Source of the DNA: Zea mays
Lineage: Eukaryota > Streptophyta > Magnoliopsida > Poales > Poaceae
NCBI RefSeq assembly: GCF_902167145.1
Contig: NC_050098.1
Span: forward strand, 11,986,501 to 12,050,500
Direction: 5' to 3'
DNA length: 64,000 nt
Shown piece by piece: positions 15,954 through 62,402 of this stretch. Made by a program: the position numbers and the translations under genes. Numbering within the stretch: the stretch's first letter is position 1; each line of letters starts with the position of its first letter. The notes under the pieces were generated by a model. It was not told the DNA's origin. It worked only from the letters and a program-made list of their open reading frames with translations, and ran no database searches.

Positions 15954-15976
15954 ATCTCGAGGACAAGATTCTTTTT

Positions 15977-15988: not shown

Positions 15989-15990
15989 TT

Positions 15991-18290: not shown

Positions 18291-18334
18291 GGTGGAGTTC
18301 AAAACTAGCCGTTGGGCAGATTTTTCTGCCTGAG

Positions 18335-19843: not shown

Positions 19844-21096
19844 ATCTCCCCCTTTTTGGTGATTGATGACAACACATTTAAAGCTTACATAAGATTTGAT
19901 AAATAAGATTTTAAATCCTATGATATAGTTTCCTCCCCCTAAATATGTGCATTTCAGAAAATAACACTTTTGTACTCAAATGCCAAAAGCACATATTTAG
20001 GTCAAAGTATAGACAACTTATATCATACTATTCATAGGGTGCAGTGTGTCATAAAATAAACGTGATGCTCATGACATGGAATGCACTTATCAACTTTCTT
20101 CATCTTATGTTTTTCTTATGACTTCCCCTTTTTGTTAATTATTTCTCCCCTTTTTAAAAGTCTTCTAACACTTAGTTACATAAGACTAAAGGTAAGCTTT
20201 AATGCACAATTTCTCCCCCTTTGTCATAAATCTCCAAAAAGGATACAAAGAATATAAAGGATAGAAATTATGATTAAGCGAGATGTGAACACACTATCAT
20301 GAAAGGGATCCTTAGATGGCACAAAGGTAATGGATAAGTGTCATAAGTGATGTACCTTTGTGTTTTACCTTTTCAAGGGGTTTCCAGACTTGTGTTGGAT
20401 TTAGAATTCATTTGCAAGCTCTTGTTGGCATAATTGTGACATAGGTCCAAGATAGCAAATGAAGATTGTCATACTAACTGAAAGATAAATCTTGATACCT
20501 GGAGTCTAGATGTCACCTAGCATTTTCTTATCACAACAAGAGGCAACATGAAAATTGCACAAGTATGGATTATGCAACTAGTGATCATGTATGAAAAATA
20601 TCAATTGAAAAACACCAATTGATACAATTTGATAGATAAATAGATCACTAATAGCATATTACACTAAGTTCTCCTCAAGTTTTAGTGCACACATATATAT
20701 ATGAATTCAATTGATATATGTTGAGAGTACTTATTTGAAATTTAAAGTACCATTAGCATAAAAGGAGTATCAACTGAACATAATCATGCAACATAAGGAA
20801 CATGTGCACTATTTAATCAATTAAGTTCTAGACAGGAGAATCTATAAGCTATGCTACTTCAGATATTTGTAATCCAAAAAGATGTGATACATATTTACCA
20901 ATTTTAGATGACGTTGGAGTAGCATATACAAGAGAAACTCATTCTCTTATGAAATGTATAGAAGTTACATTTATTGGAGCAAAGAATCTTTGATACTCAT
21001 CAAAATTTGCAGTGGAAGCGATTGTCTTTGCTTGAGGATTCCTTTCTAATTTGAGACTACACACATAATAGACTTGAAAATGAAGTTAGTCTCAAA
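19844..21096 (-). other. Residual internal region of the SIRE-type element
   Basis: AT-rich, without a coding region; corresponds to the stretch just upstream of the 3' LTR in the element's own orientation. Rich in TCTCCCCCT-type tracts on the plus strand. Confidence 0.6.
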
Positions 21097-21963
21097 AATG
21101 CAAGGGCAGTAGGGGAGTTGCATGTAAGGAGGTTCTCGGGTTGATTTTGCTGCGATGGCGGTCAGACGAGGGATTCTTGCAAGTGCTCTTCCCATAAACT
21201 GTAGCAGGTTTTCGAAAGCTAGTGGAACTTTGTAAAGGCCTCGTAGTGGATCCCTAGCCATTCACCTCGTTAGTGTCTAAGGGTCTAGCTAACCCTGGTG
21301 ACATGGGAAACACGACTTGTGGGTAAAGGGTACAACCTCTGCAGAGTGTAAAACTGGTATACTAGCCGAGCTCACGGTCATGAGCAGCTCAGGACTCTCT
21401 GATGATTAATCTATAGAACTTAAATTCAATTTATCATTTGCATTGCATGAGATTTGTTATTAATTTTGTTCTATTATTTTATTATGGTTTGATATTCACT
21501 TACACTTAGTAACTGCTAATAAAATTTTGACCAACTTATAAAAGCAATGCTCAGCTTTAACCTCTATTGTTGATCAGCCTTACACTTCATGAACTCCCAC
21601 CTTTGGTGAGTTCATGTCACATTATTCCCCACAACTTGTTGAGCGATGAACATATGTGAGCTCACCCTTGCTGTCTCACACCCCCACAGGTCAAGAACAG
21701 GTACCACTAGATGAGGCGCATGGTGGATGTTGCACTGTGTTCGTGAGAGATCTAGGTCGTCGTCTCCCAGTTGACTCTCTGGCGCCAAGGATGGATTTTA
21801 GTGATCCATATCTATCATTTATTTTGTAAGTCTTCCGCTATGTAATAAGTACTCTGATTATATTGTGACATTTATCTCTATACACTCTGTTATTATATAT
21901 GTTGTCTTCTTTGGCGCATGTATGAGATGCACCCGACTTTGTCCCTTAAAACCGGGTGTGACA
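21097..21963 (+). repeat. Tekay-2 3' LTR, right part
   Basis: Collinear with 11508-12375, including the conserved ACAACCTCTGCAGAGTGT block and hairpin, and ending GGGTGTGACA. Followed by AAGAA (21964-21968), the right target duplication. Confidence 0.92.
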
Positions 21964-22604
21964 AAGAATTAGCTTAAATAAATCAAACACAAGAGCAGAA
22001 ACACAAAAGCTAATTCGTGAGGTGTTATCATTAGAACGATGACAACTTTGTGAAGCAACTGTTCCTTTTGGTACACAGAGAGAGCGATCTGGACGGCATA
22101 GATGGACACAGAGGGGTCATCAGACTTTTTAGCATTGACAAATTTGGTCCGGGATGTGTAAGATATACCTCATGAGCATATTGTCGAATAAACTCTGTGC
22201 AGTTCCTAAGTCGACATCAACTGCTGCATCGGAGGTGAGGATGACATGATGGCAGCCAATCAAGGTTGCAAAGACTGGCAAAAGGAAAGGAGACTCATCC
22301 CCACGCCCCCAACATTCAAGCATTCTAGATCTACACAGGGTATAATGAACTGATCTAGATCTGCACCTAGTGGATATGGACAAAGGACAGAGAGAGCTGT
22401 TCACACCCACGAGAGAGAATAAAAGCGGTCGCGTCAGATCCTACCATGCTTCTAGCCTGCGTTCGTCACTGTCCAAGAAGCAGCAAGAATAGAAAAAAGA
22501 AATCCTAGCAAGAAGAAGGTGCGGAAGAGGAGCTAGATTTACCCGACAAAATCACTGGGGGAGGGGTGTGCGGCGACTGGCGAAGTGGTGGCGGCGTGTC
22601 CGTG
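21964..22604 (-). other. Possible exons of an unrecognised minus-strand gene
   Basis: On the minus strand 22274-22169 is open and bounded by an acceptor (TTTTGCCAG) and a donor (ATGAG|GTATATC). It encodes a hydrophobic segment including VFATLIGCHHVILTS. Upstream, 22590-22400 is pyrimidine-rich and 5'-UTR-like. Together these suggest a gene divergent from the Alba gene at 23644. I do not recognise the product. Further exons would have to lie beyond Tekay-2. Confidence 0.3.
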
Positions 22605-37825: not shown

Positions 37826-37962
37826 TCCCTCTGGTCCCAAGTACTTTGCTTTGACAAAAATCCATAAAACTTTTGAAACACCATCAGATTTAAAAAAATT
37901 AGTGCTCAAATTTGCACCTTGAAGATCATGAAAAGTCGCTTCAAAAGTTATCGGTCGCTTAT
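37826..37962. mobile_element. Possible Stowaway-type MITE end, cut by the Huck-like element
   Basis: TAATCCCTCTGGTCCCAAGT resembles the Stowaway terminus (CTCCCTCYGTYCC next to TA). The opposite end is not visible before 37963. Confidence 0.35.
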
Positions 37963-39300
37963 TGTCGGGTACCGTAATTAGGGGTACCCCCAACACTCCT
38001 AATCACGGCTGGTAAACACCCTCAGACCAACTGACAGGCGCGGTTCAAGTCAAGGCTTCGTCTACCCAAGGGATACGACCTTGCCCGAGCCCAGCCTCGG
38101 GTAGGAGCAGTAGTCCCGGACGAATTCATGCCTCGCCCAAGGACCTCCTCAGGCAGTGGGCACACCCTCGGCTCTCCCGAAGCCTGGCTCGGGCAGGCTT
38201 CGTTGTGAAGCAGCCTTGGCCAAACCGCCTCACCAACCGACCACATCGCAGGCGCATTCAATGCGAGGATCGTCTGACACCGTATCCTGACACACGCGCC
38301 TCAGTCAGCAGGGCCGAAGTAACCGCAGTCACTTCGCCCCCCTTTTTACTGTCCGATCTGACGGGAAAACAGCGCCGCTCGCCCCGCTCCAACTATTGTG
38401 CCAACCACCCAGGCGAAGCTGACAACAAGTCACGATCAACCACCGAGTTCGGCCTCGGGCGCAACAGGAAGCTCCGCCTCACCCGACCTCAGGCTCTGGC
38501 CTCGGGAGGAGGTCTCCGCCTCGCCCGACCTCAGGCTCCGGCCTCGGAAGGAAGTCTCCGCCTCGCCTGACCTCTGGACTCGGCCTCGACCTCGGTCTCG
38601 GGAGGAATCGCGTCCTCGCCCGACCCCGGCCTCGGCCTCAAGAGAAGCCTCCGCCTCGCTCGACCTTGGGCTCGGACCGACCGCGCCAACAGGGGATACA
38701 TCATTACCCTATTCCTAGCCAGCTCAGGCTACAAGGAACAAGACCGGCATCCCATCTGGCTTACCCCGGCGATGGGTAATGATGGTGCCCCGCGTGCAAC
38801 CATGATGCCGGTGGCTCTCAACCCCTTACGGCAGCAAGGAGACGTCAGCAGGATCGTTGCCGCACTGTCAGCTGTGCTCCTATAGAGCTCAGGCGCTTCT
38901 CCGACGGCCACGCTATCACGTATACAGGGCTCAAGCTCTCCCCCGACAGCCACGTTGGCATGTACACAGGGCTTGGGCATTTCTCTGCCAGGCACGTTAG
39001 CGCATTGCTACACCCCCCATTGTACATCTGGACCCTCTCCTTGCATCTATAAAAGGGAGGTCCAGGGCCTTCCCGCGAAGAGGAGGGCTCTCGCGCAGAG
39101 GGGGCGGCGGGCTGACGGGCCGGCTCTCTTCTTCCCTCTCGCGACGCTTGTAACCCCTACTACGAGCACCCTAGTGCAGGATAATACAAGGCTTGTCCCA
39201 CCTCTTGTGTTCCATCCCGCGCCAACCCATCTGGGCAGGGGCACGCAACGACAATTTCACTCGTCGGTCTAGGGACCCCCCCGGGTCCGAAACGCCGACA
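37963..39300 (+). repeat. Huck-like 5' LTR (1338 bp)
   Basis: From TGTCGGG to CGCCGACA, next to the primer site. The middle is dominated by CTCGCCCGACCTC-type short repeats (38460-38680). A TATA-like CTATAAAAGGG lies at about 39046. The first 951 bases match the 3' LTR base for base in length. Confidence 0.92.
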
Positions 39301-41928: not shown

Positions 41929-44434
41929 GTCCTACAAGCCTATCACCTTTGACCGACGCGACCACCCCGACTTCGTGCCAAGCCCAGGGAGGTACCCGCT
42001 CGTCGTCGATCCAATCATCGGCAACGTTAGGCTCTCTAAAGTCCTCATGGACGGAGGCAGCAGCCTTAACATCATCTACGCCGAGACCCTGGAACTCTTG
42101 GGGGTTGATAGGTCCGAGGTCCGGGCCGGTGCAGCACCCTTCCACGGGATCGCGCCCGGAAAGCGAATCCTGCCCCTCGGACGGATCGACTTACCCGTCT
42201 GCTTCGGGACTCCCTCCAACTTCCGAAAGGAAACTCTCACCTTCAAGGTCGTCGGGTTCCGAGGAACCTACCATGCGGTGTTGGGAAGGCCGTGCTACGC
42301 CAAGTTCATGGCCGTCCCCAACTACACCTACCTCAAGCTCAAGATGCCAGGCTCGAACGGGATCATCACCGTTGGATCCACGTACCGCCACACGTACGAA
42401 TGCGACGTGGAATGCGTGGAGTACGCTGAGACCCTCGCCGAGTTTGAGGCCCTCATCACCGACCTGGAACGCCTCTCCAAGGAGGCGCCCGACGCGAAGC
42501 GGCACACCAGCAACTTCGAACTAGTCGAGGCGGTCAAGTCCGTCTCTCTCGACCCCAGCAACGACACTGTCAAGAAAGTCCGGGTCGGCTCCGAGCTCGA
42601 CCCCAAATAGGAAGCAGTGCTCATCGACTTTCTCCGCGCAAACGCCGAAGTTTTTGCGTGGGGTCCCTCGGACATGCCAGGCATACCAAGGGATGTCGCC
42701 GAGCACTCTCTGTACATCAGAGCTAGAGCCCGACCCGTGAAGCAAACCCTGCGCCGTTTTGACGAAGAAAAGCGTAGGGCCTTAGGCGAGGAGATCCACA
42801 AGCTACTCGCGGCAGGGTTCATCAAAGAGGTATTCCATCCCGAATGGTTAGCTAACCCTGTTCTTGTAAGGAAGAAGGATGGGAAATGGAGGATGTGCGT
42901 AGACTACACTGGTCTAAACAAAGCATGTCCGAAGGTTCCCTACCCTCTACCTCACATCGATCAAATTATGGACTCCACTGCTGGATGCGAAACCCTGTCA
43001 TTCCTCGATGCCTACTCAGGCTATCACCAAATCAAGATGAAAGAGTCCGACCAACTCGCGACTTCTTTTATCACACCTTTTGTCATGTACTATTACACTA
43101 CAATGCCATTTGGTTTGAGGAATGCAGGCGCCACCTACCAGAGGTGCATGAACCACGTGTTCGGAGAACACATCGGCAGAACGGTCGAGGCTTACGTCGA
43201 TGACATCGTTGTCAAGATGAAGAAAGCCTCCGACCTCCTCTCTGACCTTGAAACGACATTCAAGTGTCTGAAAGCAAAAGGCGTGAAACTCAATCCCGAG
43301 AAGTGTGTCTTCGGAGTCCCCCGAGGCATGCTCCTGGGATTCATCGTCTCCGAGCGGGGTATCGAGGCCAATCCAGAGAAAATCACGGCCATCACCAACA
43401 TGGGACCGATCAAAGATTTGAAAGGAGTACAGAGGGTCATGGGATGCCTTGCGGCTCTAAGCTGCTTCATCTCACGCCTTGGCGAGAAAGGCTTGCCTCT
43501 GTACCGCCTCTTAAGGAAGGACGAGCGCTTCACTTGGACCCCCGAGGCCGAGGAAGCCCTCGAAAACCCTAAGGCGCTCCTTACAAATGCACCCATCCTG
43601 GTGCCCCCCGCTGTAAGAGAAGCCCTCTTGATCTACGTAGCCGCAACCACTCAGGTGGTTAGCACCGCGATCATAGTCGAGAGACGAGAAGAAGGGCATA
43701 CACTGCTCATCCAGAGGCCAGTCTACTTCATCAGCGAAGTACTATCCGAGACCAAAGTCTGCTACCCGCAAATCCAGAAGCTGCTCTACGCAGTGATTCT
43801 GACACGGCGAAAGTTGCGACACTACTTCGAGTCTCATCTGGTGACTATGGTGTCATCCTTCCCCCTGGGGGAGATCATCCAGTGCCGTGAGGCCTCGGGT
43901 AGGATAGCAAAGTGGGCAGTGGAGCTCATGGGCGAAACGCTATCATTCGCCCCTTGGAAGGCCATAAAATCCTAGGTCTTGGCAGACTTCCTGGCTGAGT
44001 GGACTGACAGCCAGTTACCAACAACTCCAATCCAACCCGAGCTTTGGACCATGTACTTCGATGGGTCACTCATGAAAATAGGAGCAGGCGCTGGCTTGCT
44101 CTGCGTTTCACCCCTCGCAAAGCATCTTTGCTACGTCATACGCCTCCATTTTCTGGCATCAAACAACATGGCCGAGTACGAGGCTCTTGTTAACGGGCTG
44201 CGCATCGCCATCGAGCTAGGGGTCCGGCGCCTCGACGCTCGTGGCGACTCTAGCTTGTCATCGACCAAGTCATGAAGAACTCCCACTACCGCGACCGGAG
44301 GATGGAAGCCTACTGCGACAAAGTCCGGTGCCTAGAAGACAAGTTCTACGGGCTAGAGCTCAACCACATCGCCCGACGGTACAACGAGACTGTGGATGAG
44401 CTAGCGAAGATAGCCTCGGGGCGGACGACGGTTC
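41929..44434 (+). pseudogene. pol: Huck-like pol, part 1 (protease, RT, RNase H, aRNH)
   Basis: Protease with the Tat-type motif VLMDGGSSLNI (41975-42610), then RT (42617-43975) with HPEWLANPVLV, RMCVDYTGLNKACP, DAYSGYHQIKM, the catalytic AYVDDIVVK, and classical RNase H. TAG stops at 42608-42610 and 43973-43975 fall where Gln codons are expected. From 43979 comes the extra RNase H of Tat elements: MYFDGS, NNMAEYEALVNGL, LDARGDS. A one-base loss near 44252 shifts the frame. At 44434 pol is cut by the Grande-like insertion and resumes at 56764 (GGTTC duplicated). Confidence 0.92.
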
Positions 44435-45058
44435 TGTGGGGGACAGATATCCCCCGGGTCCACCAGAAGGATAAAAGACCTCACGAAGGGCCCAAGGGCT
44501 CCATAATTCGTGAGGTCATCTCCTAGTGGGCCTGGGAGAGATGACCAGTGAAGCGGATCGACACAAGGCCGGATCGGTGCAAGCCCAGACGGCCCAACGA
44601 CTTCGAGCAAGTAATCATAACAGAGACCCGACCCTCTCGCGCTGGAGCCCCATGCGACGAAACCGAGCGAGGATGGGTCGGCGGAATTATAGGAAGATGA
44701 ACTCAATCGGTTCACTATTTCTTAGGTGCACATGGTTATCGTATCTGCATGTATTGCCCCACGGTCGAATATATAAGGCCTAGGGGGCACCCCTTCAGAA
44801 GAGATCGAACTCACTACTTAGCCATCCACCCCAACTTTCTACGCACTAGAGAACTACCTTGTAACCCACCACATACAGCACTCTCGCCAGGACGTAGGGT
44901 GTTACGCACTTCAAAGCGGCCTGAACCTGTAAACCATTGTCTACTGTCTCTCGTGCAACCGGCACGAACCATTGAGCTACAGTCGATAACACCGTCCTAC
45001 TCCTAAAAACATCTTGAGGGGCAACCCCGGGTGTGCGGTTGGACCCAAAACACCGACA
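44435..45058 (+). repeat. Grande-like 5' LTR (624 bp)
   Basis: Begins with an inverted motif (GGGGGACAGATATCCCCC) and ends ACACCGACA. A TATA-like GAATATATAAGG lies near 44768. Confidence 0.95.
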
Positions 45059-45060
45059 GC

Positions 45061-45078
45061 TGGCGCGCCAGGTAGGGG
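45061..45078 (+). other. Primer binding site of the Grande-like element
   Basis: TGGCGCGCCAGGTAGGGG, two bases after the LTR end. Confidence 0.85.
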
Positions 45079-45104
45079 GTGTGTCGTCGATCCAAGCTAG
45101 CTCA

Positions 45105-47951
45105 ATGGCCGTCACCTTCCTGCACAAGATCGTCTTCCGTCCTGGGTCCACATTCTGCTTTGGAACCAACTCATCTTTAGCGGATGAGGAGGGAACTTTG
45201 CATCGCATTGCGAATTCGACGAAGAGAAGATCCTCCCCAGAAATTTCCAAGAAAATCGGGGAAAGGCAGGAAAAGACGCAACCTCCAATGCTTCGAAAAA
45301 AGATCGCTTCTGGCAAGCCAGAGACCCAGGATCCGTCAACCCGGAGAACTCCACTGTCTACCTCTCCGACCAAAGAATGGACACAAATCACAAGAAAGAA
45401 GGAAACAAATAAAATCGGGAGGAAGCAAGTTGATCTTTCTGTGCCTCTGCCCTCAAAGGAGAACAGAAAGGAGTTCGTCACGACAGCTGCACCATTCTAC
45501 CCCGACGTCCTCTTCATCAAGAGAGTGGAGTCGCCCCCCATCTCCGACGACGAGCCGACTGTACCCGGAGAGGAACTTCCTCAGCGGGAATCCCGTCGAC
45601 GAAGGAACCGACGCCGAAATATCCGGAGACATCACGAGGCCGGAGAGCGGGACCCGGCGCAGCCTGTGTCACGAGATGAGGCCTCGGAGATGGGAGAAAC
45701 CCCAGAAGAGCGTGTCTTCCGGGAAAGGAGGAATTCCCGACGGCGTGATCGCCGGCGAGCTCAAGAACAGGCCGAACAGGAAACAAGGCAACGCCGGGAA
45801 AATCCACTCTTCGGGCGCAACCTGAACCCCGACTTCGCCCGAGCCTTAAACACGCCAAGTGAAGTCGGCGGAGTACTGGCTCGGATAGCCGACGGTCTCC
45901 CTCGGACTCCCGATGCCGAGGGCTACCGGCGACTGTTCACTCGAGCAGCCAACCATCTTCTACCCCTCGCACATCCGCCGAATGATCTACGGCATGCCAT
46001 CAACAGTCGGCGAGACGCACGGAGCTCCATCAACGCTTCACACGAACGACGACATGAGAGCGAGATCCGTCGCCGGGAAGAATATGACAGGGACCACGGC
46101 GTCCCATCCCGGAGTCAGGCTACCAGGACTGAGTCGGCTACGGCTTCGACTGGCGGCACCACCCGGGGACGGTCGAGGCACCACGACAACCACTCCCCTC
46201 CCCGGGACAGACATCATCCCCGACGACAGGAGGACACATGTGGAGTGTCGGCACTTACTCCGCGCCTCAGAGCCATTCAATGGCCTCCTAACTTCAAGGT
46301 ATCCAACGTTGACAAATATGAACCTAAGCAGGATCCAGGAGGCTGGCTGGCCATCTACACCACCGCTGCTCGAGCTACCGGAGCAACCGAGGACGTGATG
46401 ACCGCATACTTGCCCATCGTCCTCGGGCAAGATGCACTGCAATGGCTGCGATACCTACCATGACACTGCATCGACGACTGGAGTGATTTCAGTCGACGCT
46501 TCATTGCCAACTTCCAATCCCTCTCCGACAAGCCGGCGCAACCATGGGACCTCAAATCCATCAAGCGCCAGGGGGACGAAACTCTCCGGTCATACCTCAA
46601 AAGATTCCAGACCATGAGAAATCGTATCCCCGAGATCGCGGAAGCGGCGGTGATCGAAGGCTTCTACCGGGGATCTGATGACTCAGCCTTCGTCCGAACC
46701 ATACTGCTGAAGGCGCCGACCACCTCCAAACAACTGTTCTGAGAAGCCGACCTCTATATCACCACCGACGAGCGAGCTCGGGACCTCATCGGAGGAACGA
46801 AGCCGGCACTGGCGGCGTCGCGACGTGACACGAACCAACAACCCGACAAGCGTTGGGAGAAGAGGCCTCGCGAAGACGTCCATGCTGCCGGACCGCCCGC
46901 CTCTCACGCCCGAGGAGGACCTCGGGGAGGCGAACGCACGCTGGACGACATCCTCGACGTCCAGTGCCCGTACCACAAAGACATGCGCCACACCCTTCGG
47001 AACTACAGAGACTTCAAGCACTCCATCGGGCACGGCCGACCCTTCCAACCTCTACCCCCTCCTCCGTCACGGGGAGGACCAGGAGAACCGCGACAACCCC
47101 AACAACAAGAGGAGGGAGGAGGAGGAGCCTTCCCACGTGTCGACAGAGAGGTCAACGTCATCTTCGGCGGACACGGATCGCAGGAAAACAAGAGACAACA
47201 AAAGCTTAACGATCACCAAATACTGGTGGCGACCACCAGTCCTCCCGCTCCGTACCGATGGTCGGAGCACCCGATCACTTTCACTCGGGTAGATCAGTGG
47301 CTTAACTTCGATCACCCAGGCAAATACCCGCTCCTCGTCGATCTGGTGATCCGAGAGAGCAGGGTGAAGAAGGTATTAGTGGACGGGGGGAGCAGCATCA
47401 ACGTCACCTTCCCCCGGACGCTCCAAGGATTAGGAGTTCGCCTCAAAGAGCTCCATGAGTCGGACACACCCTTCTTCGGCATCGTGCCAACTGAAGGAGA
47501 ATACCCGCTGGGCCACATCTACATGCCGGTCACCTTCGGGACTCCGGAAAACTACAGAACCGAATACCTGAGGTTCGAGGTGGCGAACTTCGACTGCGGG
47601 TACAACGCCATCATCAGGAGGCCTGGACTAGCAAAATTCATGGCCATTCCACATTACATATACATGATACTGAAGATGCCAGGACCACAAGGGATCATAA
47701 CTGTGCATGCTGACTTCCAAGGTGCCGCAGAATGTTTCCGAGTGGCCATCCAGGCAGCCCTCACCACCAAGCCGTCGGTGACTTCTTCTATGCAGGCAAA
47801 CTCTAAGCCTGAAGAAGACCTCGCGGTACCCGCGAACGAGGCTCAAGCTGCGACCTCTATGCGGCCGATTGAAGAAACTAAAAGGATCAACCTCGGGTTC
47901 ACTGATGAACGCAAGACTGCCATCATCAGCTCCAGCCTGGATGACAAATAG
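45105..47951 (+). pseudogene. gag: Grande-like gag and protease
   Basis: ATG at 45105. A long Arg-rich N-terminal region (RRRRNRRRNIRRHHEAGERD) precedes a capsid domain (about 46270-46740: YEPKQDPGGWLAIY, DWSDFSRRFIANFQSLSDKP, SYLKRFQTMRNRIPE). TGA at 46461-46463 and 46740-46742 interrupt it. Then a nucleocapsid-like region, then the protease with VLVDGGSSINV (about 47374) and a TAG at 47949-47951. The frame is otherwise kept for 2.8 kb, so few changes separate it from an intact gene. Confidence 0.9.
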
Positions 47952-49210
47952 GAAGGCGCGCTCGTCCAGTTCCTGCAAGATAACTGATACGTATTCGCAT
48001 GGCAACCTGCGGATATACCGGGAGTCCCGAGAGAACTGACCGAGCACAAATTGAAGGTCTACCCCCAGGCAAGGCTGATTCGGCAAAAATTACGTCGTTT
48101 CACGCCCGACAAGAGAGAAGCCATTCGCGCTGAGCTGGCTCGCTTGGTCGCGGCTGGATTTATTAGAGAGGTGTTACATCCCGAGTGGCTGGCTAACCCT
48201 GTTCTTGTACTAAAAAAGAATAAGGTGGATTGGCGCATGTGCGTCGACTATATGGATCTCAACAAGCACTGTCCAAAGGATCCCTTCAGGCTCCCTAGGA
48301 TAGATCAGGTGGTAGATTCCACCGCTGGATGTTCTATGCTGTCCTTCTTGGATTGCTACTCTGGGTATCATCAGATTAGCCTGGCGAAAGAAGACAAGGA
48401 AAAAACAGCATTCATCACTCCATTCGGTGCTTTCTGCTATACCTCCATGCCGTTCGGCCTCAAAAACGCTGGAGCGACTTATCAGAGAGCTATTCAAACA
48501 TGCTTAGCCGATCACTGGGGCAAGCGTGTGGAAGCTTATGTGGACGACATGGTAATCAAAACAGAAAATTCGGAAAACTTCATTGAAGATTTACAGCTGG
48601 TTTTCAATAGTCTACGGCGATACAGATGGAAGCTTAATCCCGAGAAATGTGTTTTCGGGGTACTAGCAGGAAAATTACTCGGGTTTATTGTCAGCCACCG
48701 GGAATCAAAGCTAATCCAAAAAAGATCGAAGCTATCATGAGGATGGAGGCACCGCGATCATAGAAGAAAGTTCAAAGGCTTACCGGATGTATGGCAGCCC
48801 TGAGCAGATTCATATCCAGGTTGGGAGAAAAAGGCTTACCATTTTATAAGTTACTCAAAAAGGTAGACAAGTTTCAGTGGACTTTAGAAGCACAGGAAGC
48901 CCTAAACGCATTTAAAAAGTTCTTAACGACGCCGCCAGTGCTGAAACCGCCACGATGGGCCACGTCGACTCAACCAGCTGAAGATTTGCTGCTATATATC
49001 TCTTGCACGACTCACGTGGTGAGCACCGCGTTGGTAGTCGAGCGAGCAGAAGAAGGACATGCCTATCCAGTGCAACATCCTGTTTATTTCATTAGTGAAG
49101 TTCTGGGTCCCTCAAAGAAAAAATACCCTCAAGTTCAGAAGCTATTATATGCAGTACTCCTAACTGCACGCAAGCTCCGTCACTACTTCGACGACCACAA
49201 AGTCATAGTA
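47952..49210 (+). pseudogene. pol: Grande-like pol, truncated in RNase H, no integrase
   Basis: RT with HPEWLANPVLVLKK, DYMDLNKHCPKDPF, DCYSGYHQIS and the catalytic AYVDDMVIK. There is a TGA near 47986, a one-base loss near 48702 and a TAG near 48760. RNase H then reads to RKLRHYFDDHKVIVV and ends at about 49209, where the tandem array begins. The rest of RNase H, the aRNH and the whole integrase are absent. This copy needed enzymes from another element to move, or lost them after insertion. Confidence 0.92.
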
Positions 49211-50030
49211 GTCAGCGATGACTTAAGACGGTGCGAGATGCTCACGCTTACTTAACTCGGGGTGACCACTATACCCTACTAACGGAGCAATCGGTTTAAG
49301 TCAGCGATGACTTAAGACGGTGCGACATGCTCACGCTTACTTAACTCGGGGTGACCACTATGCCCTGCTAAAACGGAGCAATTGGCTTAAGTCGGCAACA
49401 ACTTAAGACGGTGCAACATGCTCACGCTTACTTAACTCGGGGTGACCACTATGCCCTGCTAAATGAAGCAATCGGCTTAAGTCGGCAACGACTTAAGACG
49501 GTGCAACATGCTCACGCTTACTTAACTCGGGGTGACCACTATGCCATGCTAGCGGAGCAATCGGCTTAAGACGGCAACAACTTAAGACGGTGCGACATGC
49601 TCACGCTTACTTAACTCGGGGTGACCACTATACCCTACTAATGGAGCAATCAGTTTAAGTCAGCGATGACTTAAGACGGTGCGACATGCTCACGCTTACT
49701 TAACTCGGGGTGACCACTATGCCCTGCTAAAACGGAGCAATCGGCTTAAGTCGGCAACAACTTAAGACGGTGCAACATGCTCACGCTTACTTAACTCGGG
49801 GTGACCACTATGCCCTGCTAAACGAAGCAATCGGCTTAAGTCAGCAACGACTTAAGATGGTGCAACATGCTCACGCTTACTTAACTTGGGGTGACCACTA
49901 TGCCCTGCTAGCGGAGCAATCGACTTAAGACGACAACAACTTAAGAACGGTGCAACATGCTCGCGCTTACTTAACTTGGGGTGGCCACTATACCGCACCA
50001 ACGAAGCAATCAGTTCGAGTTGATACTAAC
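49211..50030 (+). repeat. Tandem array, about 90-bp units in a 359-bp higher-order repeat
   Basis: About nine units starting near 49211, 49300, 49391, 49481, 49570, 49659, 49750, 49840 and 49929. Each contains GACTTAAGACGGTGC, CATGCTCACGCTTACTTAAC and GGGTGACCACTAT. Units four apart are the most alike: 49300/49659, 49391/49750 and 49481/49840 are each exactly 359 bases apart. The last unit (about 50020) is degenerate. Confidence 0.95.
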
Positions 50031-50259
50031 TCAAACTGGCGCAACACACTCGGCGCGTACACGGTTACTCATCCAGGGGCGACCTCTATGTCCCACGAAG
50101 GAGTCTCGAAACCATTACGCTGCATTTTACTTCTACAAATATAGAAACTGTTGAATTCTAAACAATGGGAGAACAATAGCAGCATTCAAGTACTGAAATG
50201 TGTCCTCTAACGAAACATCCGAGCACGTTAACCACGTGCTCAAAGCATACAATGTTTTT
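50031..50259. other. Spacer between the array and the antisense gene
   Basis: Short region downstream of the antisense gene's stop; nothing recognised. Confidence 0.5.
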
Positions 50260-53200
50260 CTATTTTGCAACGTTCTTTTCAGGAGCAACCGACGAAGAAG
50301 GACGACTGGAAGAATCAGGAGCGGCGTTCACATCTGCCACTATATCGTCAGGGACAACCACACCAGGTCTCCTCATTAGAATCTGCCCCGCGCGAATAGC
50401 TTTATCCATAGCTTTATCGCGCTGGGCCCTCAGAGTGGCGGAAGTCTCTTCAGCAACCTTGACAGCCAACTGAGCGGCCTCTAGCTCCTGGGCGACGGAT
50501 TTCTTAGAAGCACACAGATTCTTGATGACAACATCTTTGACTGATATCAACTGTCTGAGGCGAATCATGTCATCCAAGGATTCTTGCAGCTTATAACGAA
50601 GATTGTGTAACTCCTCCCTGGTAAAGCGATGACTCCTCTCCAAGATGGTCAGCGAGTTGCTAGAGTCACGGTATAGCCTGTCAAGATTGTCACGAGAAGT
50701 AACAAGGGCACGTTTTTCTTCCTGCAAGCAAGAGTCAGCTTCTTCAAATGTCAAGCAAGCAATAAGAGCACAGCAAAATAAAACCCGGATTCAAATATCA
50801 CCTTTTCAGAGTCAAGCTGAGCGTGAAGAGTAGAGTTCAGCGTGTTAGCATCATTCAGAGAAGAAGAAACTTGGGCCAGCTCAGTCTGACTTTGGGAATA
50901 CTTTTCCTGAAGATCAGAGCACCGCGGGACCAAAGCAGCTTGACCTTGAGAGAGTTTTTCTTCAAGATCAGAATACTGCCGAGTCATATCTGGCGAGAAA
51001 CAGTCAAGCAAAGGTGCTAAAATAAGAAGCACTTTAATAAGGTAGCCAAAAGGAAGCAAAAGAGCACTGACCAGCATTCGCCGCCTCTAAGTCAGAAACA
51101 CGCCGCTGAAGCAGCACCAGATTCCAACGCGCTAGAGACAAAGCTCCTTCTGGGACAGAAGCGCCCTGCGACCTCAGCTGACTAGACATCTCATCGACCA
51201 ACGCCTGGCATTAAAAAGCAGACAAGCATGAGAGTAATTATCTGCTTGGGTAAAAGTCAGACCAAAAGAAACCAAAATACCTGGAAGTTGGAGAAGAAGG
51301 AGGCGACTCCCAAGTCGTGAGAGATCAACTGATGGCTCGGTAAAGGATCACCACCTAGAGCAACTTGCAACGATTCAGCAGGGACCAATTCAGTGTCATC
51401 AGCAGAACCCAAAATTTTGTCATCAGGTACGCTGGCCTCTAAAGCGACCCCTTGGCCAAAGGTTTGGGCTGTCACCATGCAACCAGAGTATGGAGGAGAG
51501 GACCCTATGTGAACATCCATGGAAGTGCAAGAGGGAGAACCCGCTCGGACACCCTCGGGGGCTGGGTCGTAGCTTGCACTACCCATCCGAGTCGGATCAT
51601 CTCTGGCAACACCCTCGGGGGCTGGGTAAGTGCCAGCACCATCCTTGAGGGCCGAGTTCTCTGCAGCAGCCGCCTCTAAGGCTGAAGGTCCCTCGGCCAG
51701 TTCCATGGGAGCAGGGGAATCCAAACCAGCTCCCTGACCCTCAAGACCGTGCTCCAAGGTCGTCGAGGCGCAAGACGCTGCCCGGGATGATCCCAACCCG
51801 GCGTCGAGCACATCAACGCAAACATCCATCGCGCCACCATCTGCTGGTTCTGATAACAGATCTTCTGGAACCATGTCTTCAAGAGTTTGATCAAAATTCA
51901 CCAGGGATAATTCTTGCAGACCAATGAGGGCAGACAAGGCAGGAGAAGGGACACCACTACTTTCCCCACTAGCTATATAACGACGGTTGTTCTTCTGAAT
52001 CAGAGGGATTTCGTCCTCTTCCTCGTCATCCTCACCAACAACACGGACAGCACACCCATTGGGATCAGCGTCAGACGGGTCACACCCATTGGGATTAGCT
52101 TCAGTAAATTCAGACACTGGCACTTCCTCAGCAACAGGAGCAGAAGGACCGGCACCTTGATCCAAGCTAGACACCCGACGAAGACGTCTCTTTTTCTTTT
52201 TCTTCCCCTCAGCAGGAAAAGAGGCTTGATCAACTTGGCGAGAACATTTTGGACGAACATTGATAGACTTCTGAGCGTCCAAAGCTTTGTCAGCTTCAGG
52301 GATGGGCACCACCACAAATGTTTCAGCAAGAGCGGCATCAGAAGAATCCTCAGCCAACATATCCAGCATGGCACCTATATCTGCATCACTGGGATCCAAA
52401 GGCACCTCGAAATGAACCTGCCTTTCATCATCAAGAATTTCGTCAAGCGAAGCAACCAAAGCGCTAACTTCTTCGGCAGAGGGTCGCACTCTAAGGCCCA
52501 AACCGCCACCACCAGCAGGAGGATTTGATACAAAATGGGTGAAGGCCTTGGAAGGAGGCAGGTTCCAGGCCGAATACGCAACAGGGACGCCAACATTTGA
52601 CACTTTGCCTCTGAGTATCATTTCAAGCCGGCTCACCAAATCCACAGCAGGAATTCTTCTGTTGGTAACCCGGGTTGAGTCAGCCAGGCCTCGGTACAGA
52701 TAGGCCGGATGTGCCCTGTCTTTCAGTGGCTGAATATTCTTGAAGACAAAATCAGCAACCACAGCCTCTGCAGTCAGACCTCTCCCCTTCAACAATCCGA
52801 CTTCAACTAATAGAGCCCTTGCCTCAACCACCTCCTGGTCTGTGGGGGCTTCGGTCTAGCTCGGAGTGCGAACATCCGGCTGTCTCCCTGACCGTGGGGG
52901 GAGGGAATTCCCATGATTCTCCACGGTAAACCACTCTAAGCGCCATCCTTTGATACTGTCCTTGAGTGGGATGTCAAGGTAGTCAGTCTTCCTCCCACGG
53001 CGCATCTCCAAGCTCGCGCCCCCTACCAGTTGGTGCTGCCCTCCGGCAATCCCAGGGCGACAGTGATACAAATATTTCCACAGTCCAAAGTGTGGCAGGA
53101 TGCCAAGAAAAGCCTCACACAAATGAACAAAGATGGAGATTTCCAGAATGGAATTGGGGTTCAGATGAGTCAGATTCAAGTGATAGAAATCGAGGATACC

Positions 53201-53476
53201 GCGGAAAAAGGGAGAAATAGGAAGGGCAAGGCCGCAGAGGAGAAATGGAATGTAGACGACGGACTCATGAGTGTCTTCTGTTGGAACAGTGACCCCACAG
53301 CAGATCCTCCAGGAACAGAGTTCTTTCGGAGGAAGAACTCCGATGGACATGAGATGGAAAAGGTCAGACTCAGAAACAACAGACGTATGGTTACCTGTGA
53401 AAGGCAACTGACTGTTGGGATCGATGGGGGGAATGACAGCAACAGATGAACTCGAGGTTTTTTGCTTGGGCGCCAT
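50260..53476 (-). pseudogene. Antisense gene 1 of the Grande-like element (PF04195-like, coiled coil, four exons)
   Basis: Minus-strand exons 53476-51281, 51204-51072, 50989-50802 and 50721-50260. The three introns are 76-82 bp with GT-AG borders and consistent phases, 993 codons in all. The ATG context is GAGATGGCG. The N-terminus matches the plant putative-gypsy-type-transposon family (PF04195, Transposase_28): LMSIGVLPPKELCSWRICCG, FRGILDFYHLNLTHLNPNSI, VHLCEAFLGI. A single TAG interrupts at codon 207 (52856-52858). The middle is acidic and low-complexity with a basic, NLS-like KKKKKRRLRR. Exons 2-4 encode long heptad-rich coiled coils (LEEKLSQGQAAL, LYRDSSNSLTILERSHRFTR) and a Pro/Ser tail. 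As far as I recall, Grande- and Retand-type Tat elements are known to carry an antisense gene downstream of pol; its function is unknown. Apart from one TAG, frame and splicing are intact. Confidence 0.85.
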
Positions 53477-53640
53477 CTCAACCTCGCCGGCGAGCGGAGC
53501 GGAAGCAGAATCGCAAAAAGGCAGAGAAGGCCTGAATGCAGGAAAGCAGAAACTAGGGCACAGAGCGTGGAGTCATGCTACAGTGCAGTACATATGGGGT
53601 TTTCCCGGGCCAGATGCCGTTCCCAAAAAAACGCCCAGTC
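53477..53640 (-). promoter_or_regulatory. Presumed promoter and 5' UTR of antisense gene 1
   Basis: Sits between the ATG at 53476 and the 41-bp array. A weak TATA-like CCATATGTACTG (minus strand) lies near 53590. Placement is the main support. Confidence 0.3.
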
Positions 53641-54110
53641 ATCACCAGGCGGTTACTTCTAAAACGCTAGCGTGCCATGTCATCACCCAGCGGTTATTTC
53701 TAAAACGCTGGCGTGCCAACTCATCACCCGACGGTTACTTCTAAAACGCTAGCGTGCCAACTCATCACTCAGCTGTTGTTTCTAAAAGCTGGCGTGCCAT
53801 GTCGTCACTCGGCCATTATTTCCAAAACGGCCGACACAGCTAAAATTGACTCGGCTGTTACCTCTAAAACGCCGACGTCACCATCAGTCACTCGGCTGTT
53901 ACCTCTAAAAAACGTCGATGTTGCCAACAATCACTCAGTTGTTACCTCTATAACGCTGATATCACCAGTAACCACTCGGTCGTTAATTCTAAAAACACCG
54001 ATGTGGCCCCGCCATCATTCGGACGCTACTTCAGAAGCGCCAATGTTGTCAATAATAACTTGGTCATCACCCCTAAAAGCGACAATGTGACTCCAAGTGA
54101 CTCGGCTACT
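53641..54110 (-). repeat. Tandem array, about 41-bp units
   Basis: About eleven diverging units with GGTTACTTCTAAAACGC followed by GCGTGCCA and TCATCAC. The first starts are near 53651, 53692 and 53733, 41 bases apart. Later units drift. It lies just upstream of antisense gene 1. Confidence 0.85.
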
Positions 54111-54451
54111 ATTTCTGAGGCATCAATGTTGCAGATAAAACGAACGGAAGAATGATTCGAGAACTCCAAGTTACTACTTAAGCATAGCAGACAGAGAACA
54201 TCATGGGCAATAAATGTTGTGACGATCATCAACCGACCAGGAGGCGAAGTAATCAACACAGGAGGAAACGAAATTGTTCTTCATAAAGGGAAGCTACAGA
54301 ACTTACAAATCAACTCGTTATGAGTTGATACTTCCCTACTACTACTACTACATTACATTACCACTACTCTATACTACTAGCTACTACTACATTATTTCAC
54401 TAATACTATTTCTACTACTAATCTATACTAATATCTAAAAACCAGTGGCAT
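54111..54451. other. Spacer with CTA/ACT microsatellite
   Basis: 54337-54430 is a run of (CTA)n-like triplets; the rest is not recognised. It is the downstream flank of antisense ORF 2. Confidence 0.6.
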
Positions 54452-54907
54452 CTAGCCACTGGCCTGGTTGCTGCCCCTGCTGCTGCCCTTGCCGCTGCCG
54501 TCGCCGCCCTTGCCGCTGCCGTCACCGCCCTTGCCGCTGTCGTCGCCACCGTCGCCGTCGCCTCCGTCGTCGTCGCCGTCTCCGCCATTGCCGCCGCTTC
54601 CCTCCTCGGACGAGTCCGAGGAGTCCTCCTCGTCCGAGGAGTACTCTGACTCATCCGAGCCCTCGAGCCCAGCGTGCTCGACGGCCCGGATGTAGGTCCA
54701 GACCTCCGCGGCAATCCCCTGTGAGTCGTCTAAATCATCAAACGACGCCGGGGGAGAGACGGGGGCCGGAGATCCCTCGGACCCAGAGGAGAACTCCTCC
54801 TCCGAGTACTCCTAGTTGCCGAAGTCCTCCGAGGGAGGAGTCGGTTCACGTTTGTGCTTGTCACCAGAGCGAGGTGAGGAACTGCTACCCTTCTTACTCT
54901 TGCCCAT
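54452..54907 (-). pseudogene. Antisense ORF 2 of the Grande-like element (acidic, Ser/Gly-rich, 151 codons)
   Basis: Minus-strand ATG at 54907 in a strong context (CCACCATGG), stop TAG at 54454-54452. The start is basic (MGKSKKGSSSSPRSGDKHKR), then an acidic serine-rich part (EYSEEEFSSGSEGS), a short conserved-looking core (FDDLDDSQGIAAEVWTYIRA), another acidic stretch (SEYSSDEEDSSDSSEE), and a GGDG/GSGKG repeat tail. One in-frame TAG at codon 32 (54814-54812) breaks it. I do not recognise the family. A TATA-like CTATTAATAG lies about 80 bases upstream on the same strand (near 54987). It is transcribed in the same direction as antisense gene 1. Confidence 0.6.
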
Positions 54908-54979
54908 GGTGGAAAGGAAGGAGGAAGAAGAGAGCAAGCAGCAGAGAGCAGTAAGAGATGTGAAAATACCGGGGAAGCA

Positions 54980-54990
54980 AGAACACTATT
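54980..54990 (-). promoter_or_regulatory. Putative TATA box for antisense ORF 2
   Basis: CTATTAATAG on the minus strand, followed by a pyrimidine-rich leader down to the ATG at 54907. Confidence 0.35.
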
Positions 54991-54999
54991 AATAGAAGA

Positions 55000-56130
55000 A
55001 GAAGGCAACCGCTCACCTCCTACCATGGCCACTGAACAGTCGCAAAAATTCAATATGCAATTCAAACCGTCTGAAGACACGTCAGACGGCTGACACCGTT
55101 TCACGCAACACAACACCCATTGGGACTCCAGTCAACTGCGCGGGCGATATGATTACACCCGCGGTCACATCAAGTTACTACTCAGAAGCAGTTCGCTAAA
55201 CACTCAGCGTACCAAGCCGTCCCTTGCCTACACCCATTGGGGGGGACGCCCAGGAAATACCAGTATATTTTTCAAAACTGTCACATCCGTGCAGTACGTG
55301 CAATGAATACTTCAAGACAAAAGTGAGATATCAACAAGGATCAAAGGAAAGCCAAATACAGCCAACAAGGTACAAGTCTAATCGACAGAAACATTGAAGC
55401 AAGAAGTGATAACGAAGACTAGCCAAGGGTCACCTGTCGAACGTCCAATCAGTCACAGATCAAATAAATTGCACTGTCTAGCAAGATATGTGCAGATCAC
55501 GAACTCGGCCTCAAAGACAAAATATACGCTGACCTCTAAAGCGTAATATCAATAACATAGTGCTGACCTCCAAGGCATTCGGCAAGAAGGGAAGAAGATT
55601 ACTGGAAAAGGGCATAAAATGAAGATCTTCGAGTAGATTATTTTCAAAAAATCCACTCGAAGCTCGGGGGCTACACCCATTGGGAGCACCTTCGGTGCGC
55701 CCAATGAATCATCATCTCAGATCAAGACAATGCTGACCTCTAAAGCATAGGGTAAAATCAATACAAGGCTGACCTCCGACATAGTACAAGTGGAAAATGA
55801 AAGTGATTTCTGATAACACTCGAAGTGAAGACCTTCGAGTGGATTATTTTCAAAAATCCACTCGAAGCTCGGGGGCTACACCCCACCCAATGAAATTCAA
55901 AGTCCTACAGTACGAAATGCTAACCTCTGAAGCAAGGGTCTGAGACAGAACACCAAATTTCGAGCAATAAAAGCAGAAGAAGGCAGTGAAAAATTGTTTT
56001 TATCGAACCACTCAAAACTCAGAAGCGTTGGCCCGGCAAGCTTATCCCCAAAGCGTTTTCTTGTTAAATCAAAAGACTAGAAGCTAGGCCTAGGATCATT
56101 GGGCCGTTTATTTCAAAATCGACCCAAAGA
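55000..56130. other. Grande-like 3' untranslated region
   Basis: No gene. ACACCCATTGGG recurs (about 55107, 55228, 55674). A block with ATTTTCAAAAAATCCACTCG and AGCTCGGGGGCTACACCC occurs twice (about 55640-55685 and 55845-55885) and contains a copy of the polypurine-like CTCGGGGGCT. Confidence 0.7.
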
Positions 56131-56139
56131 TCGGGGGCT
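56131..56139 (+). other. Polypurine tract of the Grande-like element
   Basis: TCGGGGGCT directly precedes the 3' LTR. Confidence 0.7.
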
Positions 56140-56763
56140 TGTGGGGGACAGATATCCCCCGGGTCCACCAGAAGGATAAAAGACCTCACGAAGGGCCCAA
56201 GGGCTCCATAATTCGTGAGGTCATCTCCTAGTGGGCCTGGGAGAGATGACTAGTGAAGCTTATCGGCACAAGGCCGGATCGGTGCAAGCCCAGACGGCCC
56301 AATGACTTCGAGCAAGTAATCATAACAGAGACCCGACCCTCTCGCGCTAGAGCCCCATGCGACGGAACCGAGCGAGGATGGGTCGGCGGAATTATAGGAA
56401 GGTGAACTCAATCGGTTCACTATTTCTTAGGTGCACATGGTTATCATATCTGCATGTATTGCCCTACGGTCGAATATATAAGGCCTAGGGGGCACCCCTT
56501 CAGAAGAGATCGAACTCACTACTTAGCCATCCACCCCAACTTTCTATGCACTAGAGAACTACCTTGTAACCCACCACATACAGCACTCTCGCCAGGACGT
56601 AGGGTGTTACGCACTTCAAAGCGCCCCGAACCTGTAAACCATTGTCTACTGTCTCTCGTGCAACCGGCACGAACCATTGAGCTACAGTCAATAACACCGT
56701 CCTACTCCTAAAAACATCTTGAGGGGCAACCCCGGGTGTGCGGTCGAACCCAAAACACCGACA
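56140..56763 (+). repeat. Grande-like 3' LTR (624 bp)
   Basis: Same length as the 5' LTR, with no indels seen, followed by GGTTC. Confidence 0.95.
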
Positions 56764-58170
56764 GGTTCCCTCGGACGTCTTCTCCAGAGACCTACATCAA
56801 CTATCCGTCAAGATCGACGACACGCCCGAACCCGAGGAAGCCTCGGCCCAGCCCGAGGTACCCTCGGCCATCGAGGAGGAGGCCTTGCCTGTCGAGGGGG
56901 AACAGAATGGGGTCACACCAGATCCGAACTGGCAGACCCCGTATCTGGAATATCTCCTCCGAGGAGAGCTTCCCCTCGACAAGGCCAAAGCTCGGCGACT
57001 GGCTCGGCGCGCCAAGTCGTTCGTCTTGCTGGGTGATGAAAAGGAGCTCTATCACCGCAACCCCTCGGGCATCCTCCAACGATGCATATCCATCGCCCAA
57101 GGACAAGAGCTGTTGCAAGAAATACACTCGGGGGCTTATGGCCACCATGCAGCACCTCGAGCCCTCGTGGGGAATGCCTTCCGACAAGGTTTCTACTGGC
57201 CAACCGCGGTGGCCGACGCCACTAGGATTGTACGCTCCTGCCAGGGGTGTCAATTCTACGCAAAGCAGACACGCCTGCCTGCTCAGACCCTGCAGACGAT
57301 ACCCATCACCTGGCCGTTTGCAGTATGGGGTCTGGACCTCGTCGGTCCCTTGCAAAAGGCACCCGGGGGCTTCTCGCACCTACTGGTCGCCATCGACAAA
57401 TTCTCCAAGTGGATCGAGGTCCGACCCTTGATCAGCATCAGGTCCGAGCAGGCGGTGGCGTTCTTCACCAATATCATCCATCGCTTTGGAGTCCCGAACT
57501 CCATCATCACCGACAATGGCACATAGTTCACCGGGAAAAGTTCCTGGACTTCTGCGAGGACCACCACATTCGTGTGGACTGGGCCGCCGTAGCTCACCCC
57601 ATGACGAATGGGCAAGTGGAGCGTGCCAACGATATGATTTTGCAGGGACTCAAACCGAGGATCTACAACAACCTCAACAAGTTCGGCAAGCGGTGGATGA
57701 AAGAGCTACCCTCGGTAGTCTGGAGTCTGAGGACGACGCCGAGCCGAGCCACGGGTTTCTTGCCATTTTTTCTAGTCTATGGGGCCGAGGCCGTCCTCCC
57801 CACGGACTTAGAATACGGTTCCCCGAGGACGAAGGCGTACGACGACCGAGGCAACCAGATCAGCCGACAGGACTCGCTGGACCAGCTCGAAGAAGCTCGA
57901 GACGTTGCCTTACTACATTTGGCACGGTATGAGCAGTCTCTGTGACGCTACCACACCCAAAGGGTTCGGCCCCGAGGCTTCCAAGTGGGAGACTTGGTGC
58001 TTCGTCTGCGACAGGATGCTCGAGGGCGCCACAAGCTCACTCCTCCCTGGGAAGGGCCCTTCATCATCGCCAAGATTTTGAAGCCCGAAACATACAAGCT
58101 GGCCAACGACTAAGGCGAGGTCTACAGCAACACTTGGAACGTCCAACAGCTACGTCGCTTCTACCCTTAA
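56764..58170 (+). pseudogene. pol: Huck-like pol, part 2 (integrase)
   Basis: Continues the frame cut at 44434. It has the integrase zinc finger (LLQEIHSGAYGHH, CQGCQFYA), the core (WGLDLVGPL, ITDNGT, GQVERANDMIL) and the C-terminal domain (RGFQVGDLVLR, GPFIIAKIL, QLRRFYP, stop at 58170). A TAG at 57524-57526 replaces the Gln of NGTQFTG and a base is lost nearby. Further stops lie at about 57943 (TGA) and 58111 (TAA). Not functional. Confidence 0.9.
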
Positions 58171-61190: not shown

Positions 61191-61204
61191 GGCTCGGGGG
61201 CTAC
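61191..61204 (+). other. Polypurine tract of the Huck-like element
   Basis: GGCTCGGGGGCTAC immediately before the 3' LTR. Confidence 0.7.
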
Positions 61205-62155
61205 TGTCGGGTACCGTAATTAGGGGTACCCCCAACACTCCTAATCATGGCTGGTAAACACCCTCAGACCAACAGACGGGCGCGGTTCAAGTCAAGGCTT
61301 CGTCTACCCAAGGGACGCGACCTTGCCCGAGCCCAGCCTCGGGCCGGAGCAGTAGTCCCGGATGAATTCACGCCTCGCCCGAGGACCTCCTCAGGCAGCG
61401 AGCACACCCTCGGCTCTCCCGAAGCCTGGCTCGGGTAGGCTTCGTTGTGAAACAGCCTTGGCCAAACCGCCTCACCAACCGACCACATCGCAGGCGCATT
61501 CAATGCGAGGATCGTCTGACACCGTATCCTGACACACGTGCCTCAGTCGGCAGGGCCAAAGTGACCGCAGTCACTTCGTCCCCCTTTTTACTGTCCGATC
61601 TGAAGGGAAAACAGTGCCGCTCGCCCCGCTCCGACTACTGTGCCAACCACCCAGGCGAAGCTGACAACAAGTCACGATCAACCACCGAGTTCGGCCTCGG
61701 GCGCAACAGGAAGCTCTGCCTCACCCGACCTCAGGCTCCGGCCTCGGGAGGAGGTCTCCGCCTCGCCCGACCTTAGGCTCCAGCCTCGGAAGGAAGTCTC
61801 CGCCTCGCCCGACCTCCGGACTCGGCCTCGACCTCGGTCTCGAGAGGAATCGTGTCCTCGCCCGACCCCGGCCTCGGCCTCAAGAGAAGCCTCCACCTCG
61901 CCCGACCTTGGGCTCGGACCGACCGCGCCAACAGGGGATACATCATTACCCTATTCCTAGCCAGCTCAGGCTACAAGGAACAAGACCGGTGTCCCATCTG
62001 GCTTACCCCGGCGACGGGTAATGATGGTGCCCTGCGTGCAACCATGACGCCGATGGCTCTTAGCCCCTTACTGCAGCAAGGAGACGTCAGCAGGATCCTT
62101 GCCGCAGTGCCAGCTGTGCTCCTACAGGGCTCAGGCGCTTCTCCGACAGCCACGC
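61205..62155 (+). repeat. Huck-like 3' LTR, left 951 bp
   Basis: Collinear with 37963-38913 without net indels. It is cut after CCACGC by the Opie/Ji-like insertion; the remainder is beyond the window. Confidence 0.92.
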
Positions 62156-62402
62156 TGAAAGGGAAATGTGCCCTTGGGCCATTTCTAAGTATTTTGGTGA
62201 TTGAGTGCAAACACAAGGGCCTAAATGTGAAAATATGCTCATGGATGAACAAAGTGTAAATCACAAGTAAAGGTATGTTTCTAAGCCTTAGTACATTAGT
62301 TTTGTGTACTAACATCTTGTCTAAGTGTTAGAAACAGGAGAAAGAAGAAAAGAAAAGAAGTGGAGAGTGGCTGTGTACAGCCAAAGGCTGCTTCGGGCTG
62401 GG

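What the first reader, a model, noticed from the sequence alone, without database searches (positions are those of the whole stretch)
50260..53476. Four-exon antisense gene with coiled coils inside a Grande-like retrotransposon
Seen: minus-strand exons with clean GT-AG introns of 76-82 bp and consistent phases encode about 992 residues, broken by a single TAG. Known: PF04195-type ORFs are found in plants, and antisense ORFs occur downstream of pol in some Tat elements. Inference: an intact-looking, spliced, antisense gene kept in an element that has lost integrase suggests it serves something other than direct integration, such as particle, chromatin or silencing control.
Basis: partly seen in the sequence, partly recalled or inferred. 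Interest (0 to 1): 0.75.

Follow-up and report, generated by a model that had tools for sequence, protein, structure and literature searches.

The report
Spliced antisense accessory gene in retrotransposon
A decayed plant retrotransposon copy carries, on the strand opposite its replication genes, a four-exon accessory gene of a family already described in maize and other plants; the new detail is comparative evidence that its pieces are joined by splicing.

Summary
On the minus strand, 53476-50260, four exons with GT-AG introns of 76, 82 and 80 nt give 992 codons with one internal TAG. Exon 1 carries PF04195 / Transposase_28 (E 1.8e-25). The gene lies between pol and the 3' LTR of a 12.3-kb element, 44435-56763. 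This is the known antisense ORF of Retand-type elements (Grande GENE23; PMC7264820, PMC11963269), so the family is not new. I add comparative support for introns 1 and 3. The intron-1 donor codon is V (GTN) in 60 of 63 relatives. Five of seven read-through relatives recover exon 2 at intron lengths 71, 74, 75, 76 and 76, all three classes modulo 3, against 0 of 2,100 shuffles (pattern chosen after viewing them). Intron-3 residues vary about twice as much as exon-4 residues. This copy is a fossil: 0.87 new stops are expected by neutral decay, one is seen. Probable role: a nuclear regulatory factor of the element, inferred, not shown. The coiled-coil claim has weak support. dN/dS and RNA evidence could not be obtained.

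The parts
44435..45058 (+). 5' LTR (624 bp), preceded by target-site copy GGTTC at 44430-44434
   Evidence: self-BLAST; flanks; alignment
45059..49255 (+). gag-pol remains: gag region, protease region, RT (PF00078), RNase H (complete by one model, cut at position 79 of 105 by another); four in-frame stops and one frame change; no integrase found
49220..49991 (+). tandem array, 89-bp unit, 8.6 copies
   Evidence: TRF
51281..53476 (-). exon 1 of the antisense gene: ATG, PF04195 at residues 73-140, basic KKKKKRRLRR stretch; TAG at codon 207
51205..51280 (-). intron 1, 76 nt, GT-AG
51072..51204 (-). exon 2
50990..51071 (-). intron 2, 82 nt, GT-AG (least comparative support)
   Evidence: ends of P0119 and P0003
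50802..50989 (-). exon 3
50722..50801 (-). intron 3, 80 nt, GT-AG
50260..50721 (-). exon 4, conserved C-terminal part, possibly coiled coil, stop codon
53633..54004 (-). two arrays of 41-bp repeats (53633-53829, 53849-54004), beginning 157 nt upstream of the antisense ATG; candidate promoter region, untested
   Evidence: relative P0001 begins with a repeated stretch upstream of its start
56140..56763 (+). 3' LTR (624 bp), followed by target-site copy GGTTC at 56764-56768

Best explanation
This is a decayed copy of the antisense additional gene (aORF-3R, Transposase_28 / TRP28 class, of which Grande GENE23 is the characterised case) of a Retand-type Ty3/gypsy element. The family's gene is a spliced, four-exon gene: a TRP28 domain, then a low-complexity charged linker with a nuclear-import-like basic stretch, then a C-terminal part, perhaps coiled coil, encoded by exons 2-4. 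Inferred mechanism: a promoter upstream of the ATG drives antisense transcription, the host splices the transcript, and the protein enters the nucleus, self-associates through its C-terminal part and acts on the element's own nucleic acid as a regulatory or pre-integration factor. The introns survive retrotransposition because the sense genomic RNA shows them as CT...AC, which the spliceosome does not remove. Shown here: gene structure, domain, signs of conserved introns 1 and 3 among relatives, decay of this copy. Inferred: transcription, splicing in vivo, intron 2 in relatives, nuclear entry, self-association and function.
For: PF04195 hit. [quoted passage not shown] 160 relatives of the spliced protein and 1,665 of the exon-4 ORF. 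Donor codon V in 60 of 63 relatives that reach past exon 1, out of 120 listed. Exon 2 recovered at intron lengths 71, 74, 75, 76, 76 in 5 of 7 read-through relatives, 0 of 2,100 shuffles. Intron 3 read through in 3 of 314 proteins with lengths 78, 81, 81 against 80 here. Residues before exon 4 are LQ, which fits a CAG acceptor, in 101 of 105 relatives matched out of 120. Non-majority residues 19.3% in intron 3 against 9.7% in exon 4 (46 of 120 rows). A frame of 698 codons survives at 57% identity (P0091), while 0 of 100 neutral runs at that identity kept a 525-codon part open. Literature on GENE23: antisense transcription from its own promoter and nuclear location (PMC7264820, parts 1-2 of 3 read).
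Against: Relatives are metagenome gene calls, which favour open frames, and the listed ones are the best-scoring 120 per search. The exon-2 pattern was chosen after I had seen the read-through tails. Some translated intron-3 columns are themselves well conserved (for example F15 0.02 and I10 0.07 mismatch), so the relatives are recent and the contrast is modest. 3 of 63 donor codons are not V and 4 of 105 acceptor residues are not Q. Intron 2 has almost no comparative support. In P0136 the codon after exon 3 is G, so its donor is shifted or broken. Two models of exon-1 relatives had pLDDT 30 and 43, so no fold can be claimed. The only TATAWW between the ATG and the 3' LTR is 2050 nt upstream. 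This copy is interrupted after residue 206.
Confidence: 0.78

Rival explanations
1. The antisense transcript matters as RNA: it pairs with genomic RNA and feeds small-RNA silencing or damps the element; the ORF is incidental.
For: PMC7264820 raises this possibility; the gene lies wholly opposite the genomic RNA.
Against: Long frames at 57% identity beyond neutral expectation, lower variation in exon 4 than in intron 3, and an unchanged spliced frame despite varying intron length point to a protein.
Confidence: 0.12
2. The four exons are not one gene: exon 1 (TRP28) and the exon-4 ORF are separate antisense ORFs, as ORF-only surveys list them.
For: ORF-based annotation reports TRP28 and Smc-type antisense domains as ORFs (PMC11963269); the relatives here are separate gene calls.
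Against: Exon-1 conservation drops at a conserved GT donor, and exon 2 resumes in one protein frame at three classes of intron length; exon 4 is preceded by more variable sequence ending in a conserved acceptor codon.
Confidence: 0.08
3. The region is kept as DNA or RNA in cis (packaging, length, promoter insulation), while gag-pol functions can be supplied in trans.
For: This copy has no detectable integrase and the Alopecurus clusters 2 and 3b in Table 1 of PMC11963269 lack RH and INT but keep the antisense region.
Against: A purely cis role does not explain amino-acid conservation.
Confidence: 0.15

Closest known systems
Grande GENE23 (maize and teosinte)
   Same: Antisense gene between pol and 3' LTR of a Retand-type element; similar LTR size (631 vs 624 bp); reported own promoter and nuclear protein (PMC7264820)
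   Different: Sequence identity to GENE23 not tested; no integrase detected in this copy, and one internal stop; splicing of GENE23 could not be checked because Gomez-Orte et al. 2013 is not held
TRP28 antisense ORFs of Retand elements (Vicient 2025, PMC11963269)
   Same: PF04195, orientation, position, tandem arrays nearby
   Different: That survey is ORF-based; 'intron' does not occur in its text and 'splic' only in its references. Here TRP28 and the C-terminal ORF are read as exons of one gene
Ogre elements with a spliced intron in gag-pol
   Same: Plant Ty3/gypsy elements that use splicing (passage in PMC6317226)
   Different: There the intron is in the sense transcript; here the introns are antisense

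Membership tests
Retand-lineage antisense TRP28 gene (aORF-3R) | PF04195 domain | tested here: met
   E 1.8e-25, 89.4 bits vs cut-off 26.2
Retand-lineage antisense TRP28 gene (aORF-3R) | Antisense, between pol and 3' LTR | tested here: met
Retand-lineage antisense TRP28 gene (aORF-3R) | Reverse transcriptase groups with Retand | not testable with these tools
   RVT_1 present, but no reference set of plant RTs was available
Retand-lineage antisense TRP28 gene (aORF-3R) | Long pol-3' LTR region, often with tandem arrays | tested here: met
   49256-56139 is 6,884 bp, slightly above the printed range of 2,933-6,566 bp; with integrase missing the start of the region is arbitrary; arrays
Grande | Sequence identity to Grande | not testable with these tools
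   no plant repeat collection; only sizes compared
Grande GENE23 | Nuclear protein expressed from its own promoter | not testable with these tools
   basic stretch KKKKKRRLRR present; only TATAWW is 2050 nt upstream
Coiled-coil protein | Heptad periodicity in the C-terminal part | tested here: inconclusive
   three neighbouring windows p 0.007-0.037 of 34 tested, five other C-terminal windows p 0.07-0.76; no Pfam family above its cut-off for exon 4

The most novel reading that the evidence does not exclude
Across Retand elements, the antisense ORFs listed separately as TRP28 and as Smc-, Mis12- or checkpoint-like are exons of one spliced gene with introns kept because they are invisible to splicing in the sense genomic RNA: an intron-bearing accessory gene carried through reverse transcription.
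Probability: 0.5. Interest if true: 0.55.

Novelty: new member of a known kind. Interest (0 to 1): 0.38.

Why it matters
If the two classes of antisense ORF are one spliced gene, annotation of many plant elements changes, and the full protein (TRP28 plus C-terminal part) becomes the right object for functional tests. Conserved introns also speak against capture from a spliced host mRNA and make the origin of the gene more testable.

Tried and rejected
Looked for DNA of relatives to compute dN/dS: five scans of viral contigs and one of genome contigs confirmed no relative. The window's own genome could not be searched: the same genome search was sent nine times and never answered. As a substitute I used the translated introns of relatives as a rough yardstick; introns have constrained ends, which makes the contrast conservative, but relatives are not independent and the listed ones are the best-scoring.

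Structure: two AlphaFold2 jobs gave pLDDT 30 and 43; I ran no fold search on them. A PDB profile search gave one match at E 0.91, taken as noise. Pfam matches of the four C-terminal or read-through proteins scanned are all below their cut-offs; NCBIfam gave two sub-threshold matches for exon 4 and none for the two exon-1 pieces. Rfam at gathering thresholds found nothing in 44000-57000.

Rejected: a chance ORF; a detectable antisense copy in the outer element (tblastn of the spliced protein at E<=1e-3 matched only its own exons in the window); intron-less processed copies (0 of 314 fetched proteins have either of the two joined-junction patterns searched for; most do not span a junction). Seven paper searches showed, in the listed titles and abstract starts, no paper on introns in this antisense gene.

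Full report
What is there. The window holds an LTR element at 44435-56763. Its LTRs are 624 bp each (44435-45058 and 56140-56763) and differ at 16 of 624 sites, 13 transitions and 3 transversions, K2P 0.0262. At 1.3e-8 per site per year (a rate recalled, from no source here) this is about 1.0 My. The target-site copy GGTTC stands on both sides (flanks printed). The element sits inside an older one with repeats at 37960-38914 and 61202-62156, whose integrase region follows the inner 3' LTR.

Sense strand. From 45059 come a gag region, a protease region, RT (PF00078, E 2e-28) and RNase H; gag and protease are named from ORF order and recalled motifs, since Pfam gave no match at E<=0.01 for those two ORFs. 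One RNase H model is matched whole (1-100 of 100), the other from 14 to 79 of 105. The gag-pol frame has stops at 46461, 46740, 47949 and 47985 and changes frame between 48738 and 48764; one break could be a natural gag-pol boundary. tblastn with the outer element's integrase region found only itself; one query only, so remote integrase traces are not excluded. An 89-bp tandem array follows at 49220-49991.

Antisense gene. PF04195 lies in residues 73-140. A basic stretch KKKKKRRLRR lies in the middle part. Under neutral decay since insertion 39 substitutions and 0.87 new stops are expected in the coding part, and one stop is present. So the copy could have been intact at insertion and decaying since. 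The codon is sense, invariant or nearly so, in the aligned relatives that reach it (A1 of 21 rows, A3 of 85 rows), so copies without this stop exist.

Is it more than a drawn gene model? Relatives are unspliced gene calls, nearly all from metagenome contigs, presumably plant DNA in root or soil samples (inference). The spliced protein found 160 relatives at E<=0.001 among 7,996 scored candidates, 120 listed; the exon-4 ORF found 1,665 of 1,770, 120 listed; the TRP28 region of P0091 found 409 of 3,020, 120 listed.

Intron 1. Of the 120 relatives listed, 70 contain the end-of-exon-1 motif; 7 of these end there; in the other 63 the donor codon is V (so GT) in 60, I in 2, L in 1. In the 54 with enough tail, non-majority residues average 16% over the last 30 exon codons and 38% over the six codons after the donor codon. 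Seven relatives read at least 25 residues past exon 1. In five of these, back-translation finds exon 2 (A/T-L-V-D-x-M after an AG) at intron lengths 71, 74, 75, 76 and 76, that is all three classes modulo 3. The two misses are P0001, whose tail is too short for the test, and P0003, which seems to have lost part of the intron. 0 of 2,100 shuffled tails gave a match, 300 per relative; the two short tails leave little room for one. I had seen the tails before I wrote the pattern, so the shuffles do not measure that choice. One protein frame with intron lengths of all three classes is what splicing predicts.

Intron 3. Three of 314 fetched proteins read through it in frame: lengths 78 (P0135), 81 (P0136) and 81 (P0165), against 80 here. 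P0136 starts with a G codon, so its donor is shifted or broken. The residues before exon 4 are LQ in 101 of 105 matched relatives (of 120), LH in 3, LE in 1. In the 46 of 120 relatives that cover most of the translated intron, non-majority residues are 178 of 920 (19.3%) in the intron and 681 of 7,033 (9.7%) in exon 4; Mann-Whitney over columns p 0.0035. Several intron columns are as conserved as the exon. Columns and relatives are not independent, so p is a guide. Intron 2 has little support: P0119 and P0003 end right after exon 2 in the expected codon.

Constraint on the protein. P0091 keeps a 698-residue frame at 57% identity over 70% of the query. In 100 neutral runs to 57% identity over 525 codons, none was free of stops (mean 7.8); nor was any at 75% or 65%; at 84% identity 9 of 100 were. 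Gene callers report open frames only, so close relatives prove little and distant ones more. dN/dS could not be computed.

Coiled coil and fold. Heptad-type periodicity is seen in windows 785-840, 813-868 and 841-896 (p 0.037, 0.007, 0.010), not in the five other C-terminal windows (p 0.07-0.76), and in one window elsewhere (309-364, p 0.040), of 34 tested. This is modest. Structure models were too poor to use.

What is known. PMC11963269 (parts 1-3 of 5 read; find) reports antisense TRP28 ORFs in 97% of clusters of recently active Retand elements, tandem arrays, and predicted DNA binding, plus, in antisense ORFs, 11 Smc, 2 mitotic checkpoint, 2 polymerase III, 1 topoisomerase 2 and 1 Mis12 domains. 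PMC7264820 (parts 1-2 of 3 read) reviews GENE23 of Grande: antisense transcription from its own promoter, nuclear location, possible regulatory or RNA roles, and asks for a look at antisense and spliced transcripts. PMC3091746 (passages only) gives Grande as 13.769 kb with LTR 631 bp. PMC6317226 (passages only) reports Transposase_28 in 23% of Retand elements and a spliced sense intron in Ogre. The gene is therefore a known kind. Exon-4 relatives carry mixed automatic names: hypothetical protein, YhaN, EnvC-like septal ring factor, and 'chromosome segregation ATPase' among others; one exon 3-4 relative has a sub-threshold Mis12 match (E 0.68). This suggests, no more, that the Smc- and Mis12-like ORFs of the survey are the C-terminal exons of the same gene.

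How it most likely works. Shown: structure, domain, conservation of donor and frame across relatives. Inferred: an antisense promoter upstream of the ATG, where 41-bp repeats lie, host splicing, nuclear entry, self-association by the C-terminal part, action on the element's nucleic acid. The reason introns persist is established splicing logic: on the sense genomic RNA they read CT...AC and are not removed. Three introns also argue against capture from a spliced mRNA.

Noticed in passing
37960-62156: Older LTR element (repeats of 955 bp, 94.9% identical) interrupted by the element of this finding; it has RT and integrase domains, and tblastn at E<=1e-3 found no antisense relative of this gene in it.
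   Followed up: partly
11508-21966: Another pair of long direct repeats (872 bp, 96.9%) about 9.6 kb apart, perhaps a further LTR element; its ends were not settled.
   Followed up: partly
49220-49991: 89-bp tandem array, also described by TRF with a 359-bp period, starting where the RNase H ORF ends.
   Followed up: partly
53633-54004: Two arrays of 41-bp repeats beginning 157 nt upstream of the antisense start codon; relative P0001 begins with a repeated stretch upstream of its start.
   Followed up: partly
45059-49255: The gag-pol frame carries four stops and a frame change, more than the antisense gene's single stop, although both share one insertion date.
   Followed up: partly
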